A stretch of 64,000 nt of DNA from Kondoa malvinella (lineage: Eukaryota; Basidiomycota; Agaricostilbomycetes; Agaricostilbales; Kondoaceae): NCBI GenBank assembly GCA_039545315.1, contig BCIM01000009.1:310001-374000 (forward strand), read 5' to 3'. The first letter of the stretch is position 1. Every line of letters begins with the position of its first letter. Positions 6,843-15,877 of the stretch are shown one piece after another. The position numbers were made by a program, and so were the translations under genes. The notes under the pieces are model-generated. The model had not been told where the DNA came from and made no database searches. It was given only the letters and a program-made list of their open reading frames with translations.

Positions 6843-8690
6843 ATGCCAATCAAACAAGATCTGATCGCCGCAGGTGGTGAACTCAGTGCGTCCCTCACCA
6901 GCCTTTCTGAGCGCTGTAGTATCCCGCTCATACATTCTCAACAGTCGGCACCACAATGTTTCTGTTCTTGGGTAAGACATGCAAATCCTGATTGCTCATC
7001 GTCAAAAAGCTTAATTCGGCATTTAGGTCTGGGAGGCATCAAAACGGCACAAAATTCAGAGACTGTCTCGCAGCAGCAGACGTACGTCCTTGTCTGGGTC
7101 TAGGATGAAAGACTGATGTGTCTAGCAGTGCCGGGACAATCGCATTGTCGAACCAGACCATTCTGTTCATTAGCACTTCTATGGGATTCAGTCTACTAGT
7201 AACAGCTTGGATCTTCTATCGGTAAGCTCCAGCATCTTCACTTCATCCTGATAGGTTGACGGAGAATTGTAGTATCACTGGAGGGTCAGTTTGTCGCATC
7301 AGCAACTGACCTTTGCTAAGATCTAGGCAGACTCTTCAATCCCGCCATCACACTCGCCCTTTGGTTCATCGGTGGTGTCGAGTCATTTCGGGCCGTGTTG
7401 CTGGTCATCGCACAACTTGCAGGCGGAATCCTCGGCGCAGGTCTGGTCGCGCTATTGACGCCTTATGGAGGAGTAGAGAACACCATCACTACACTTGCGC
7501 CTTTCGTAAATGTTGCGCAGGGTTTGTTCATGGAAGCGTCAGTCATTTGCGATCAAGTGCTGCTGAAGCTGAACGCTAAAGCAGATTCTTGACTGCGGTT
7601 CTGGTCTTTTCTGTCCTTATGTTGGCTGCGTAAGTGCGAGTAGCTAGTAGTACGTACCTCCGCTGACAGAAGATGCCTTAGCGAGAAGCACAAAGCTACT
7701 TTCATCGCTGTATGTTTTTGCTTGACTATCGATGCCTTTGCTGACAGTTCTGTGTAGCCTATCGGTATCGGTCTAGTACTCTTCGTCTGCCAGCTTCTCG
7801 GTACTCTATGGACCGGATGTGGCATGAACCCTGCTCGAAGTATGCTTCTCGCATTTGATGAGTCTCAGCTGATGTCGGCAACAGGTCTGGGACCATCTGT
7901 CATCTCTGCTTCTTTCCCTAGCTATCACTGGATCTACTGGATTGGTCCGCTTATCGGTATGCTGCTCTACTGTGTTGCACCCCTTCACAGCTGACGAACC
8001 GTCTATCGGCAGGTTCTTTGATCTCGGTCACGTAGGCCGTTTTTCAGGTAGGCGATTTTTACATCCTCACCTCTATCTAGGCTCTACACCATCCTCAAGC
8101 TCTTCGACTATGGTAGTGTTGTGTTGTAAGCCCCTCTTTACCCATTGTGCTGGAGTATTCTTAGCAAGTTGGCTCAGGGGTCAAGACTCTGACAATACCG
8201 AGCAATCCCCATCTGTCGTATCGAAATTGAGCCAGTGGTCTGCTCGTCATGGCTTTACACGATCACAAAGAGACGCTCTTGCCGCTTCTGGCATGAAAAA
8301 GGCAGAGATCGACAAAGCTGAAGTGAGTGATCTGTGAACTGGTTGTCTGTAAACTGATAATTTGGCCAGCGTGGAATGATGCATGGAGCAGTCATTATAG
8401 AAGAGCAAGAAGCAGCAGACAACACGAATGGCCAAGCCGATGGCATGCTCGCACCAGCCATCGCCGGCAGGCCTGAAATGTCCACGCGTCCATCGCATGT
8501 TCAACAGACGCTGCCAAACGGACAAGTCGGCTACGTGCGTCAGGACTCGACTCGTGGACATTCTGGCGGCTCTCAAGGCGGATATGCCACTGAATCTGGC
8601 GCCCATCCTATCTTCGATCCACCCCTCACGGATGCCAGAGGACAGGACATTGGTGCTATGGCTGCACCTGCAACGCATAAATCTCCGTAA
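6843..8690 (+). CDS. Aquaporin (MIP family), copy 1
   Basis: Membrane channel for water or small solutes. The spliced protein starts MPIKQDLIAAGGELIGTTMF and has six hydrophobic segments. Both pore signatures are present: LFNPAITLALWF and CGMNPARSLGPSV. The residue after the second NPAR is Ser, not the Asp usual in glycerol channels, which favours an orthodox aquaporin. About ten short introns are inferred. After the last membrane helix (LYTILKLFDYGSVVL) comes a polar cytoplasmic tail rich in Gln, Gly and Asp, ending at TAA 8688-8690. Bases 7332-8187 appear identical, in reverse complement, to part of the second aquaporin at 14016-15877, whereas the first four exons and the tail differ between the copies. 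SMC6 lies directly downstream. Confidence 0.85.
7332..8187 (+). repeat. 856-bp inverted repeat, left arm
   Basis: This segment matches the reverse complement of 14487-15342 over the same length of 856 bp. Where I compared bases (both ends, the intron near 8055-8085 and the last membrane exon) there is no mismatch, and all four overlapping conceptual translations I compared on both strands are identical. It begins one base inside the exon encoding the first NPA motif and ends in the codon run for WLRGQD just after the last membrane helix. Outside these borders the two genes diverge abruptly. Confidence 0.9.
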
Positions 8691-9145
8691 GCGCGCCTCG
8701 TCATGCCTTTGACTTGACTGATGGAACTTTCAGACTCGGTCTGCACAGACTGACTGGTATCTTGAGCGGAAAATAGTTGTTTGCACGACAATTAAGTGGG
8801 GAACACATACACGGACACTCGCATTGTAAGCTATCTATTGGTCACACTATGTGCGTTCGCAGCAAAAGAAGGAATTCACTGTGCAGCACCGGACACTTCT
8901 TCGATATCTTTCCTTCTTGGCGGCTTGATTACAAAGTGCGCATAGGTCACAAGTGTGGCCGGCATCATGAGTTGCTGGACAACATGCATGAATGCTAAAG
9001 CAGCGCACCGCATTCAACGACAGCCAATGACACGTATACCGCTCAGGGCATAACCGCTGCAATATACCACTGCCTAAGCAGTATACATCAGCTTGGAATG
9101 CCCAAAGTCATATAACCTGAATTCAAGCTGTCAACAAATATCAAC
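8691..9145. promoter_or_regulatory. Intergenic region upstream of SMC6
   Basis: A 455-bp stretch between aquaporin copy 1 and SMC6. No convincing coding frame or RNA gene was found. It should contain the aquaporin 3' end and the SMC6 promoter. Confidence 0.35.
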
Positions 9146-12100
9146 ATGAAGCGCTCCGCGTCTGCAGCCCTCAGCGTCCCCGACAGTAGCGATGAAGATA
9201 AGCCTGCTGTTGTTCGTTGTGCCTCAAAGTGAAGGCGACCATGCATGATTGTTTTGATCCGTCAATAGAAACGCGTTCGAAGTACTGCCCAAGACATACA
9301 AGAGGATCTTCAGCACTACGAGGAAGCCGTACCAGGTGCATCGCTAGCCTGAAGAGCTCTGGTCAGACAGCTGAAGCCGATATAGAGGATCATGACGTGC
9401 AAGCTGAGGATGATACTGCCATTGAGGCCGGTGCTACTCAATTGGCCAAGCAAGAGAAGCTCGAAGAGAAAGATCAAGGCAAGGCAGCTCAGGCTGGAGT
9501 TGTCAAGTCAATCGAGTGCGTGAAATACCGTAGATAGTAAGTCGACTGACCATACGACAGAGTAACGGACTTCATGTGCCATCCCAAGATGACTCTCAGA
9601 TTGGGGTAAGCTATCTCGCTGAGCCGGCTGCGCATCGCTAAATCGAATACAAGTGATCGCATAAATGTCAGTTCTCTCTGACGAGCGAAGGTCATTATGT
9701 TTAGATCGCCCTTCTAGTTCATCGTTGGTCACAATGGAAGTAAGCTGACTGTTTTCTAGTACAAAATGCACAACTGACCAGACGATAGGCGGAAAATCTG
9801 CTTTCATGACCGCCCTGCAAATTGCTTTGGGTGCAAAGGCTGTTGTCACTGTAAGCGAACCGTATGCAGACGCTTTTATGCAGCTCATCCAATCTTTTCA
9901 GGGTCGTGGTAATGGCCTCAAAGAGCTTGTCCGAAACGCTCCCGAGTGCACAAAAGCTACCATCACGATCCGTCTAGCCAACAAAGGTCTTGATGCACAT
10001 CGACCCGAAGTCTATGGCGAATCTATCTTGATCACGCGCACGATCTCCAGAGAGAATGGAGGAGGAGGATACAAGATCGCTGCCCATGACGGCTCTGTTA
10101 TTTCCAAAAAGCGCACCGAATTACAGGCTATCATAGATACCTTCAAGATTGAAGTCGACAATCCCGTGTCTTTCCTCTCGCAAGACAATGCACGCCAGTT
10201 CTTGCATAATGCCACGCCGCATGAAAAATACGTCTTCTTTCTTCGTGGAACGCTATTACAGCAACTGACTGAGGAATACGCACAACTCTACGACCTGAAC
10301 AAAGAGATCAAGGATTGCATAGGCAAACAGAGACAAGAGCTGCCAAACCTCAAGAAGGATGTAGAAAAGGCAATGCAGCGACAAAGAGCTGCAGGCGCAG
10401 CTCATGTCCAGACAGCCCATCTGGAAGAAGCCAAGAATTGTTTAGCCTGGGCCTTTGTCTCGGAGATAGAAGACACGATGGAAGATCGAGCTGCCAAAAT
10501 TCCGGAAGAGCAGGACAGGGCCACTATGATCGAGAACAGACTTGAGAAGTACAAAGTCAGCCAATAATACCACAGGCTTACCAGCACTAAATTATCACGT
10601 AGATCGCATTGGATGAAGCGAACGAGAGCTTTACCGATCTTGAAGCGAAAGTCTCGCAGGCGCAGGCGTCAAAAGATACACTCATTGACGAATTGGATGA
10701 GATCAGAAGACAGTTGAGAGAGTCTGGCGCGGAACTTAAGCGTCTGGGTGTAAGCTAAATATGCGAGCAAGTCTTTTTCATAACTCTAACGCAAACTTGC
10801 ATTTCAGGCCGAAGGCCGCCAGATGAAGTCAGCTATCGAAGAAGCAGAACAGCGCGCAGCTGCCTTCAAGGCTCAGCTAGAGATAAGAAATGGGAAAGAA
10901 TACACAGGACGACAACGGCATGCGCCAGCAACAGAAAGATGCCATCGAAGCCATGAAAGAACAGTCTAAAGGCCTACGCAAAGATCTTACAGTAGCTCGT
11001 CAGAACCTGGAACTACTTCACGCCAATGCTGAACAAGGCTCAGAGGAGTACAGAGTGCTCAAAATCGAGATTGGTAACTCGCAACGCGATGTGGAAGAAT
11101 GTACTCAAAAGATATCACAAGCACATCGAGGCAAAAGTGACCCCTTAGCGCCGTATCGAGGTGATATCAAAGGCGTGCTTGCTGCAATCCACCAAGACAA
11201 TGGCTGGGCTGGCAACAAACCGATCGGGCCCTTAGGGACATACATAACGCTCAAGGACCAACAGTGGAGCAATACCATCGATACAGTGTTAACCGGTCAG
11301 TTGAATGGTTTTGTTTGCTCTTCTCGTCGGGACGTCAAAAGAATGTCAGACATACTCAAGCGATTCAATCTTAAAGATTCTCCTGTCTTTGTTGGCAACC
11401 GCAACCCGCGCTTAGAAGAACAACTACGTCAAGTAGATCCGGGGCCACAGTTTACAACTATATACAAGGTGCTGAGTGTCAGTAGACTCAGCAAACAACC
11501 CCCCACTGTCTAATTCTCGCATCAGTTCTCGCATGAGCTCGTTCGAAGCATTATTGTCGACATTGCAAAGCCAGAGTCAGCGATCCTCGTGACTGATAGG
11601 GCAGAAGGCGACCGTATTATGATGTACCCGCCTCGCTATGTCCGCGCGTGCTACACGCCTGATGGGTATCGCCTCGGAGGAGTGTGAGCCTTTCGTGAAA
11701 CATGCTGATACTCACCTGACTTCTTCTCGTCACAGGAAGGGTGGAAAGCAGTCGACAGCCTTGACCCGTTACCGAGGCTTGCCCAGATTGTCCAAAGATA
11801 CTTCTGCAGCTATGGCGTATGTCAATTAGTATGTTTGAGTTGAATATGGACTCAAGGATCCCGCAGACATTTCGAGAAAGACAAGCAGCATGCCACATCT
11901 CGACTGCAGCACTTCAGCCGCAGACGCGCTGAGATGGATGCTCGTCTAAAGAGCGTACATGATCGTAAGAAAGACGCAAAGGTGGCTTTGCTGATCTCAA
12001 TGCCAGAGAAACGCTCTGACATTTCCTATCAGCTTGCAATGCGCTCTCTACAAGACCAAGATCGGAAGATTGCGAACGATATCGGAGCACTAGAGGACCA

Positions 12101-13807
12101 GATGCTCATAAGCGAGCCAGTCAGCGTCGCTCATCTTGAAGGACCAGCTGAATGTTCGTACCTTTACCATCTACGCTCTGCAAGTCTGACAAATGACGTT
12201 GCAGGAGCACACTGCAAAGGCTGAAAGCGGGCGCACACAATTCCAAGCAAATCGCGAGCGTTGGACAGCCCTGTCTCGACGAAACCACCCTATGGTCACC
12301 GAAAGAGAAAGACTAGACGCACGCAAGCTTGCTATTGAACCAGATGTTGCAAGGCACCGGGTGAGAAACCGATTTCTGCTTTCCTGAGGTCCCGGAGCTC
12401 ACGGAGATTCGACCAGGCGAAAGCTCAAAGGGCCCTTGATGTGAAGAATCAATGTCAGAGTGATGTACAACAATACGAAAGCAAGTTGGAAAAGCAAAAG
12501 GCGAAAGTGGCGGCACTCGAAGCAGCTTGGAACACGATCACTGATCAGTTAGAGGTATGTTCAGCGAGATCTAGTGACACGTAGGCTCAAACAACATCAG
12601 GCAAGAACAGAAGAAGCGGCGCAGATCTGCGCACGAGACGCTGTTACGCTAGATTTGAACAAGACCACAAAAGCCTACCAAGCCGACGTCCGAGCCCTCA
12701 CAAAGGCCCTGAGTATGACTACAAAGCGTCAAGGCGTGTCTGTCGATTTACTCAACGCAGAAGTGGCAAGATCGCTCGAGATACAGAAGAAGGCCAAACA
12801 GTCTATCAAGGATTTGACGGAATTATTTAAAGTAAGTGCCTCGCTGCTTCATTCCTTGCCTACGTAAGTGTCTAATCGGTGTATATAGGCGCTGAATGCT
12901 GCCTACATAAGTCGATCAGATCGTTGGGTACAATTACGGAAAATGTTTACAGTCCTCGCGCGCATGGAATTCACCAAGGTTAGTCAGTGTCAAGTTAGAC
13001 CCTGGAAGTGGTGCCGGTAGGCTAATTAGCTTTGTCGCTTCGAAAATGTTCAGTATATGTCTTTACGGGGCTACATCGGCAAGATGATCGTTGATTACGA
13101 TGAAGAGACAATGAAGATATGGGTACGTAGCTTGCCTCCTAGGCAATGGCATATAGCATACAGCGACGTATAGGTGAAACCCGAAGAGAGCAATGGCAGA
13201 AAGAAAGCTCCGTTCAAAAATGCCGACAGCTTATCGGGTGGTCAGTAGCTTTCATTTGCCTGATCTTTATTGATCTGGTACTTCAGGCGAGAAGAGTTTT
13301 TCGACTGTTTCGTTGCTGCTGACCCTCTGGGCATGCTTTTCCTGCCCTATTCGGGTCCTTGACGAGTTTGATGTCTACATGGATTCTGTCGCTAGATACG
13401 CTGCTATGAGTATGCTTGTGAGCTCGACCTTGTTTGATATTGGTGCAGTGCTTGATACTGCTTACAGATTGAAGGTGCACGCCTGAGTAATGGCCGGTAT
13501 GCTTTGTACTCTTGCGCGAAAGCTGTGTGCTCACGAGCTATGCAACAGACAACACATTCTCAGTAAGCTTCCGAAAGCCTACAGATGCCATGCTGACCGT
13601 CTCTTAGTATCACCGAATGCGGTTACCAACATTTCCTTTAGTCCAGACCTTCGAGTACACAAAGTGGTATGTCCTCGCACCAGCTGGACCAGCACTTTGT
13701 GACATGTGTTTTCATTGTAGGCCGATCCCCAGCGGAACCAAGTAAGCAACCTCAATCTGCTCTACGTGCAGTCTAACGGCATAGCACAGGGCCGGTTGAC
13801 AAATTAG
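9146..13807 (+). CDS. SMC6: SMC6, structural maintenance of chromosomes protein of the SMC5/6 complex
   Basis: ATPase subunit of the SMC5/6 complex, which acts in the nucleus in recombination repair and replication-fork stability. The Walker A motif GHNGSGKSA forms by splicing across an intron at 9740-9788. The block DNPVSFLSQDNARQFL is the SMC6 Q-loop region and distinguishes it from SMC5. Long coiled coils flank a hinge (around 11130-11830), and the C-terminal head has the signature LSGGEKSFSTVSLL and Walker B RVLDEFDVYMD. The N-terminus before the ATPase head is acidic and disordered. About 17 introns are inferred, including a pair bracketing a 13-nt exon at 9654-9666. In the first coiled coil the frame seems to shift by one base near 10870-10910 with no usable intron there. 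The stop is TAG 13805-13807. The gene sits between the arms of the aquaporin inverted repeat. Confidence 0.9.
9654..9666 (+). other. SMC6: Probable 13-nt microexon of SMC6
   Basis: The exon ending TTG GG at 9605 and the exon starting TTC at 9718 need 1 modulo 3 bases between them to stay in frame. Bases 9654-9666, flanked by AAG and GTCAGT, supply exactly 13 nt and give LRLGDRINFIVGHNG, matching the usual SMC6 spacing before Walker A. The flanking introns would be 48 and 51 nt. This is inferred by eye. Confidence 0.6.
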
Positions 13808-14015
13808 ATCTGCACAAGCTATGTATTGGAGCCTTCGACAATGTTGTTTGTACAAGAGTGTAATAGATTATATAAATATGACGAGTGCCCGTGTATGTAC
13901 CCCTATTTAATATGATGCAGTTTCACGTTATAATCATCAGCTCAGAATACCGTGCAGCTTGTGCAGGCCCAGACTGCAATACTCAATAAGTACAGCCAAC
14001 CTGAATAAAGACAAC

Positions 14016-15877
14016 TTACATGTTCTTGTGCCTGTGAGGAGACGAGATAGCACCATCGTCCTGAGCGCCGGCGTGGGAGAGAGACTGCTCGACCGATCGA
14101 TCGTCTTGTCTTCCGGTACCGGATGCACCTTTCGTACCATCTTGACGAACATAGCCAACTTTTCCATTAGGTAAAGTCTGGCGTACATGTGTTGGCCGAG
14201 TAGACATTTCAGGGTTGCCCTCCTCGCCAGCTCGAGCGCTGCCATTCATTTCTGCGTTTTGCTGATCTTGGATTGCAGCTCCTTCCATCATCCCGCGCTA
14301 TCAAGACATCAGCCAAAGATCTGGAGCTTTGGGTGTATCACTTACTTCAGCTTTGTCGATGTCCGCCTTTTTCATGCCCGCTGCGGCCATAGCATCTCTT
14401 TGATGGCGCGTCAGGCCATGATGTGCAGACCACTGACTGACCCTGGAGGCCACCGAAACAGGTTGGGTGGCATCCGCCTCGTCCGCGTCTTGACCCCTGA
14501 GCCAACTTGCTAAGAATACTCCAGCACAATGGGTAAAGAGGGGCTTACAACACAACACTACCATAGTCGAAGAGCTTGAGGATGGTGTAGAGCCTAGATA
14601 GAGGTGAGGATGTAAAAATCGCCTACCTGAAAAACGGCCTACGTGACCGAGATCAAAGAACCTGCCGATAGACGGTTCGTCAGCTGTGAAGGGGTGCAAC
14701 ACAGTAGAGCAGCATACCGATAAGCGGACCAATCCAGTAGATCCAGTGATAGCTAGGGAAAGAAGCAGAGATGACAGATGGTCCCAGACCTGTTGCCGAC
14801 ATCAGCTGAGACTCATCAAATGCGAGAAGCATACTTCGAGCAGGGTTCATGCCACATCCGGTCCATAGAGTACCGAGAAGCTGGCAGACGAAGAGTACTA
14901 GACCGATACCGATAGGCTACACAGAACTGTCAGCAAAGGCATCGATAGTCAAGCAAAAACATACAGCGATGAAAGTAGCTTTGTGCTTCTCGCTAAGGCA
15001 TCTTCTGTCAGCGGAGGTACGTACTACTAGCTACTCGCACTTACGCAGCCAACATAAGGACAGAAAAGACCAGAACCGCAGTCAAGAATCTGCTTTAGCG
15101 TTCAGCTTCAGCAGCACTTGATCGCAAATGACTGACGCTTCCATGAACAAACCCTGCGCAACATTTACGAAAGGCGCAAGTGTAGTGATGGTGTTCTCTA
15201 CTCCTCCATAAGGCGTCAATAGCGCGACCAGACCTGCGCCGAGGATTCCGCCTGCAAGTTGTGCGATGACCAGCAACACGGCCCGAAATGACTCGACACC
15301 ACCGATGAACCAAAGGGCGAGTGTGATGGCGGGATTGAAGAGGCTGCATTTGGATGAGTATGGATGCTGCTAATAAAGCTGCACACGTACCCTCCGGTGA
15401 TACTGCATCGCTTTGTCAGCCAGACATATCGATTAGAGTGACAGCGCGTACCGGTAGAAGATCCAAGCTGTGACCAAGAGACTGAACCCCATTGACGTAG
15501 AGATGAACAGGATAGTCTGGTTCGACAGAGAGATAGTTCCGGCCCTGCGACGCATCAGCTTGGTGACTATCAGCCGTAGAATATCGTACGTCTGCTGTTG
15601 CGTCACAGTCTCTGAATTCTGCGCCGTCTTGATGCCTCCCAAACCTATTCCGGAAATAAGCTTTGTGATGCAAATCTAGGATCTGCAGACGGACCGAGAA
15701 ACAAGAACATAGTAGTCCCAACTGTTCGCGAGTACCGATATCAGCTGCAGGTTTGCGCAGCAAGGCTCGTCGACTGACTCAATTCACCACCTGGAATAGG
15801 CATTTTCAGCTTCTGGGTGAATCCCTGATAGACAGGTGCTTACCCGCAGCTATCAAGTCTTGTTTGAGCTTCACCAT
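14016..15877 (-). CDS. Aquaporin (MIP family), copy 2
   Basis: Paralogue of the aquaporin at 6843-8690, in the opposite orientation. The start at 15877 gives MVKLKQDLIAAGGELIGTTMF. Both NPA boxes lie in the tract shared with copy 1 (14487-15342). The exons before the tract carry many synonymous and some replacement differences from copy 1, for example in the exon encoding GGIKTAQNSETVTQQQT. The cytoplasmic tail after WLRGQD is related but clearly different and ends in HKNM at TAA 14016-14018. Copy 2 has an extra intron splitting the AAGGE codons (about 15842-15793) that copy 1 lacks. It converges with SMC6, 208 bp away. Function should be as for copy 1; different tails may give different trafficking or gating. 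Confidence 0.85.
14487..15342 (-). repeat. 856-bp inverted repeat, right arm
   Basis: Reverse-complement partner of 7332-8187 with equal length and no mismatch seen where compared. The arms are 6.3 kb apart with SMC6 between them. Introns inside the arm are as identical as the exons, which purifying selection on protein would not explain. Confidence 0.9.

What the first reader, a model, noticed from the sequence alone, without database searches (positions are those of the whole stretch)
7332..15342. Identical 856-bp inverted tract inside two diverged aquaporin genes: recent gene conversion
7332-8187 and 14487-15342 are equal in length and appear identical in reverse complement, introns included. 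Directly outside, the paralogues differ: the exon encoding GGIKTAQNSET has about eight differences in 55 bases, upstream introns are unalignable, and the tails diverge from the codon after GQD. An old duplication with a sharply bounded identical core is the classic mark of gene conversion. The tract covers the pore with both NPA boxes and leaves both termini different, so the channel core is homogenised while the regulatory ends stay distinct.
Basis: partly seen in the sequence, partly recalled or inferred. Interest (0 to 1): 0.8.

Follow-up and report, generated by a model that had tools for sequence, protein, structure and literature searches.

The report
Gene conversion between two fungal aquaporins
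Two old, diverged water-channel genes that face each other in a fungal chromosome share a perfectly identical 856-base middle, introns included, which most likely means that one recently overwrote part of the other; it is a clean but ordinary case of gene conversion.

Summary
7332-8187 and the reverse complement of 14487-15342 are identical at 856 of 856 bases, the maximal exact match; a search of the 19.09-Mb genome found these two places only. They lie in two aquaporin (MIP, PF00230) genes, copy A (+, 6843-8776, 411 aa) and copy B (-, 15877-13937, 398 aa), that converge on an SMC6-like gene. The nearest named relatives are Pucciniomycotina fungi. Fourfold sites differ at 18 of 33 upstream, 0 of 101 inside and 27 of 49 downstream of the tract. 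Seven whole introns (349 bp) inside are identical; of seven flanking intron pairs, five align no better than the best of 300 shuffles. Both ends are in register. The best explanation is DNA-templated ectopic gene conversion, roughly within the last 1% of the pair's age. Identical introns argue against a cDNA donor and protein-level selection. The functional gloss is weaker: the first 78 residues lie outside the tract, yet 72/77 are identical there, so purifying selection alone keeps that part alike. No relative with both copies was identified, so donor and flank-by-copy phylogeny stay open. Side lead: a 19-bp telomere-like repeat at six contig ends.

The parts
7332..8187 (+). identical tract, copy A arm (507 exon bases, 7 complete introns of 349 bases)
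14487..15342 (-). identical tract, copy B arm
6843..8776 (+). aquaporin copy A, 15 exons by manual GT-AG model, 411 aa, MIP domain residues 12-231
   Evidence: the in-frame intron 7840-7884 was added after comparison with relatives; no RNA evidence
13937..15877 (-). aquaporin copy B, 16 exons by manual GT-AG model (one extra intron near the start codon), 398 aa, MIP domain residues 13-231
   Evidence: no RNA evidence
6843..7331 (+). diverged upstream part of copy A (residues 1-78); 5 of 77 aligned residues and 18/33 fourfold sites differ from copy B
15343..15877 (-). diverged upstream part of copy B
8188..8776 (+). diverged C-terminal tail of copy A; 59 of 148 aligned residues and 27/49 fourfold sites differ from copy B
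13937..14486 (-). diverged C-terminal tail of copy B
9150..13800 (+). SMC6-like gene between the arms (approximate limits; exons not modelled)
   Evidence: piece 9806-10564 matches solved SMC6 chains (5 of 5 distinct sequences listed, best E 2.4e-36) but no Pfam family at E 0.001; piece 10887-11510 has a weak SMC hinge match, 21.9 bits against a cut-off of 22.5, and a weak Laminin_I match, also under its cut-off

Best explanation
Two aquaporin paralogues made by an old duplication sit in inverted orientation with 6.3 kb between the arms. Recently, a break or lesion in one copy was repaired with the other as template. Repair synthesis copied 856 bases of donor DNA, exons and introns, and the new strand rejoined the recipient in register at both ends. 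The left end lies at the edge of a diverged intron and the right end at the start of the fast-evolving tail exon, where little homology remained. Shown: the identity, its sharp and in-register limits, the old divergence of both flanks, and identical introns. Inferred: that it was one event, the repair route (synthesis-dependent strand annealing is the simplest), and recency. Unknown: which copy was the donor, and whether earlier conversions had kept the cores alike.
For: 856/856 identity and two places found in the genome. Fourfold differences 18/33 upstream, 0/101 inside, 27/49 downstream; Fisher p about 2e-20. Seven whole introns identical, whereas five of the seven flanking intron pairs do not exceed their shuffle maxima. 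Upper 95% bound on divergence inside is 0.77% over 387 roughly neutral sites, against about 0.99 substitutions per fourfold site in the flanks, a ratio of about 0.8% (the flanks are near saturation, so this is rough). Both ends in register, reading frames intact in the models. No N in the window, and 19 of 20 sampled 10-kb stretches of the assembly have no N.
Against: No read data, so a few suppressed differences inside the arms cannot be excluded. No relative with both copies was identified: P0001 and P0002 are the best two hits for both queries, so the predicted discordance (core by species, flanks by copy) could not be shown. The flank tree itself joins A and B (92% bootstrap; the alternative with A next to P0001 and P0002 is not rejected, AU p = 0.227). 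Introns 1 and 2, and less clearly 3 and 4, keep some similarity outside the tract, so that side is not wholly unalignable. Recombination is suppressed by divergence in model organisms (PMC8072546, passages seen: single-strand annealing in yeast less than 50% efficient at 3% divergence), so a single event across diverged introns is not trivial.
Confidence: 0.92

Rival explanations
1. Assembly artefact: one arm is a collapsed or copied stretch, so the identity is not in the chromosome.
For: No reads are available; inverted near-identical arms are a known place for errors (recalled); one sampled stretch, the start of contig C5, holds a run of 2608 N, which may be a gap or a withheld stretch.
Against: By reasoning: collapse merges sequences that are already nearly identical; it does not turn about 20% divergent exons and diverged introns into identity and then rejoin each copy's own flank in register. 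No N in the window and 19 of 20 sampled stretches without N.
Confidence: 0.04
2. Serial concerted evolution (a version of the best explanation, not exclusive of it): the cores never diverged much because conversions recurred since the duplication, and the last one left the present perfect identity. The flanks escaped early.
For: Explains how recombination could work despite strongly diverged flanks; introns 1 and 2 on the left keep some similarity while the right-hand introns keep none, as if the left side escaped later.
Against: Fourfold divergence is the same on both sides (18/33 and 27/49); a single event explains the sharp limits.
Confidence: 0.3
3. Conversion came with a crossover, so that the SMC6 segment between the arms was inverted and the tails of A and B were exchanged.
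For: Inverted arms on one chromosome give inversion when a crossover occurs (established knowledge).
Against: Nothing here shows an exchange; no relative with the locus was available to compare.
Confidence: 0.1
4. Selection on the protein, or a cDNA donor, rather than copying of genomic DNA.
For: The pore region is conserved in the 16 relatives read.
Against: 0 of 101 fourfold sites and 0 of 349 intron bases differ; selection on the protein constrains neither, and a spliced cDNA donor would have removed the introns.
Confidence: 0.01

Closest known systems
Ectopic gene conversion between paralogues in Aspergillus flavus / A. oryzae (PMC12844118; abstract and section 3.2 read)
   Same: Fungal paralogues in one chromosome region, pairs with different transcriptional directions, near-identical or identical within a species, with introns highly similar as well as exons.
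   Different: There several gene groups, recursive conversion, gene splitting and a two-species comparison; here one pair, one sharply bounded tract inside the gene, no second species.
Aquaporin with solved structure 2w1p and entries 2w2e, 3zoj, 5bn2 (best PDB match; that it is the yeast Aqy1 of Pichia is recalled)
   Same: Same family; match over residues 4-264 of the first copy A model (E 2.8e-41), both NPA boxes aligned.
   Different: Here a C-terminal tail of 164 (A) and 151 (B) residues after GQD, and Gln where 2w1p has His seven residues before TGAG (alignment).
Aquaporins of Pucciniomycotina (Cystobasidium minutum P0009, Mixia osmundae P0011, Cyphobasidiales P0007)
   Same: 50-65% identity over 74-97% of the query, the GQD junction and a long tail.
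   Different: Whether they have an inverted neighbour is unknown: the protein search gives no gene order.

Membership tests
ectopic (interlocus) gene conversion | paralogues with a bounded stretch of far higher identity than the flanks, at neutral sites too | tested here: met
ectopic (interlocus) gene conversion | ends in register at homologous positions, gene structure unchanged | tested here: met
ectopic (interlocus) gene conversion | phylogenetic discordance: converted part groups by species, flanks by copy | tested here: inconclusive
   core A = B; flanks also join A and B (92% bootstrap), alternatives not rejected at 5% (AU p 0.227 and 0.053); no relative with both copies identified
ectopic (interlocus) gene conversion | non-reciprocal: donor unchanged, recipient overwritten | not testable with these tools
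   needs a sister strain or species with the locus
ectopic (interlocus) gene conversion | present in the real chromosome (reads) | not testable with these tools
   no reads; assembly evidence only
aquaporin (MIP, PF00230) | family profile above the curated cut-off | tested here: met
   161 and 161.9 bits against 25
aquaporin (MIP, PF00230) | two NPA boxes | tested here: met
   residues 81 and 195 of copy A
aquaporin (MIP, PF00230) | water transport | not testable with these tools
   needs an assay

The most novel reading that the evidence does not exclude
The core is a cassette kept identical by repeated conversion under selection for one shared pore, while the two tails have been free to diverge for as long as the pair has existed. 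Copying runs across introns too diverged to pair, because only the ends of the repair tract need homology. This would be modular concerted evolution inside a channel gene.
Probability: 0.12. Interest if true: 0.5.

Novelty: new member of a known kind. Interest (0 to 1): 0.3.

Why it matters
It is an unusually clean natural conversion tract: old flanks, a perfect core, and an inverted pair with only 6.3 kb between the arms and an SMC6-like gene inside. It warns that trees or dates built on the pore region of these genes would call the duplication recent when it is old. It also suggests repair copying through introns whose counterparts in the flanks hardly align. It does not by itself show anything new about aquaporin function.

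Tried and rejected
Protein-level selection and a cDNA donor were rejected because introns and fourfold sites are identical. A third copy as donor: none found (counts are lower bounds). The genome search with PF00230 gave 12 matches on contigs C2, C5, C9 and C12, four of them this pair on C9; none of the eight outside C9 appeared in the DNA search with the tract. Donor by base composition: third-position GC is 0.526 (A, N part), 0.641 (B, N part), 0.562 (core), 0.455 (A, tail) and 0.520 (B, tail), which does not decide. A search with copy B to find a B-type orthologue gave the same two best hits as copy A (120 of 733 matches listed, and 120 of 343 for copy A). Paper searches on conversion were seen as listings: 21 papers, 15 listed; 1; 2; 8; 9; no listed title is about conversion between fungal aquaporin genes, which is all I can say about print. 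The first gene model missed an in-frame intron (7840-7884); two searches were run with that model (15 residues too long), and it was corrected. Trees used 14 of the first 20 proteins listed: P0003 was dropped because it looks like two aquaporins in one gene model, and P0014, P0015, P0016, P0018 and P0019 were simply not taken; further hits were not used.

Full report
The observation. The two arms 7332-8187 and 14487-15342 are identical at 856 of 856 bases in reverse complement, and this is the longest exact match around that point. A search of the genome that holds the window (19,088,850 bases, 20 contigs, window at C9:310001-374000) found these two places and no other (the tool calls such counts lower bounds). 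The next four inverted pairs between the two genes are 75-89% alike.

The genes. Manual GT-AG models give copy A on + (6843-8776, 15 exons, 411 aa) and copy B on - (15877-13937, 16 exons, 398 aa). One in-frame 45-base intron (7840-7884) was recognised only after comparison with relatives that read NPARSFGPSV there. Both proteins match Pfam MIP far above the cut-off (161 and 161.9 bits against 25), with NPA boxes at residues 81 and 195 of copy A. The copies converge on a + strand gene whose piece 9806-10564 matches solved SMC6 chains (best E 2.4e-36). The best named hits are Pseudohyphozyma bogoriensis, Cyphobasidiales sp., Cystobasidium minutum and Mixia osmundae; three of these four were looked up and are Pucciniomycotina. 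The window is most likely from that subphylum; no species name came from any call.

The contrast. Upstream of the tract 5 of 77 aligned residues and 18 of 33 fourfold sites differ; inside 0 of 169 residues and 0 of 101 fourfold sites; downstream 59 of 148 residues and 27 of 49 fourfold sites. Pooled, 45/82 against 0/101 gives p about 2e-20 by Fisher's test. Seven complete introns, 349 bases, are identical inside. Of the seven homologous intron pairs outside, two (introns 1 and 2, upstream) align better than all 300 shuffles; introns 3 and 4 lie about two standard deviations above the shuffle mean but below the maximum; intron 5 and the two downstream show nothing. The left limit is the second base of an exon beside an unalignable intron; the right limit is 10 bases into the exon that starts the tail.

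What it means. Identity at neutral sites and introns speaks against protein selection and a spliced cDNA as donor. Collapse of reads should not erase divergence of the size seen in the flanks, and each arm continues into its own flank in register; the window has no N, and 19 of 20 sampled 10-kb stretches have none (the exception is a run of 2608 N at the start of C5, a gap or a withheld stretch). A few suppressed differences cannot be excluded without reads. Ectopic gene conversion is therefore the best reading. With no difference at 387 roughly neutral sites the divergence is under 0.77% at 95%, about 0.8% of the flank fourfold distance of 0.99; since that distance is near saturation this is only an order of magnitude.

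What stays open. Divergence suppresses recombination in model organisms (PMC8072546, passages). Either repair synthesis ran through the introns with homology needed only at the ends, or earlier conversions had kept the cores alike. The protein searches identified no relative with both copies: P0001 and P0002, unnamed proteins from short contigs, are best for both queries. In the flank tree A and B are sisters (92% bootstrap), and placing A or B with P0001 and P0002 is not rejected at 5% (AU p 0.227 and 0.053), so the age of the duplication relative to those relatives, the donor, and the flank-by-copy test are undecided.

The functional gloss. The tract does contain both NPA boxes, but the first 78 residues are outside it and are still 72/77 identical. 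Purifying selection alone keeps that part alike, so homogenisation of the channel is not shown to be an adaptation. The tails differ but keep shared blocks (alignment), and nothing here shows that they are regulatory.

Precedent. Conversion between fungal paralogues with different transcriptional directions, introns included, is described for Aspergillus flavus and A. oryzae (PMC12844118, abstract and section 3.2 read). This is a new member of a known kind.

Noticed in passing
G000 contig ends: C1 right, C2 right, C3 right, C7 left, C12 left, C17 left (L037, L018, L038, L039, L021, L040): A 19-bp unit CCTGCGTTATTGAGGTTAT lies at six of the 40 contig ends, always in the same outward orientation; in four of the six (C1, C3, C7, C17) it is mixed with a 9-bp TGAGGTTAT step. 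All 8 exact matches to a 21-base probe lie within 65 bases of a contig end; the one further match, with 2 mismatches, is internal. (TTAGGG)3 within one mismatch had no match in the genome (the tool warns that simple repeats can be skipped in DNA searches). It looks like a non-canonical telomere repeat in a basidiomycete; the arrays are short (1-3 full units). A 2023 survey section that I read (PMC10100673, section 7; its Table S2 not seen) names only short TTAGGG-like motifs for the Basidiomycota. Three searches of the paper library (9, 0 and 84 papers, 12 of the 84 listed; listings only) showed no title on such a unit.
   Followed up: partly
L041 (C2:226826-227225), about 178-223: The only internal near match: two copies of CCTGCGTTATTAGGG, 19 bases apart on the - strand (190-204 and 209-223), joined by TTAT so that they read TTAGGGTTA. 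It could be an interstitial telomere remnant or the template region of a telomerase RNA; neither was tested.
   Followed up: partly
copies A and B, inside the tract, seven residues before TGCGMNPAR: Gln stands where the solved aquaporin 2w1p has His, a selectivity-filter position by recall. Among 154 homologues held, a pattern count gives H 64, E 62, Q 23, other residue 4, no match 1; 16 of the 23 Q are among P0001-P0024, the hits nearest to this protein.
   Followed up: partly
P0003 (Pseudohyphozyma bogoriensis MNV49_003165): One 519-residue gene model holds two successive, diverged aquaporin stretches, which suggests neighbouring aquaporin paralogues, perhaps a fused model, in another fungus of the same subphylum.
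   Followed up: no
L018 about 9197-9520 (right end of C2): A reading frame that looks like a retrotransposon gag lies within 1 kb of the terminal repeat array (by eye, not searched).
   Followed up: no
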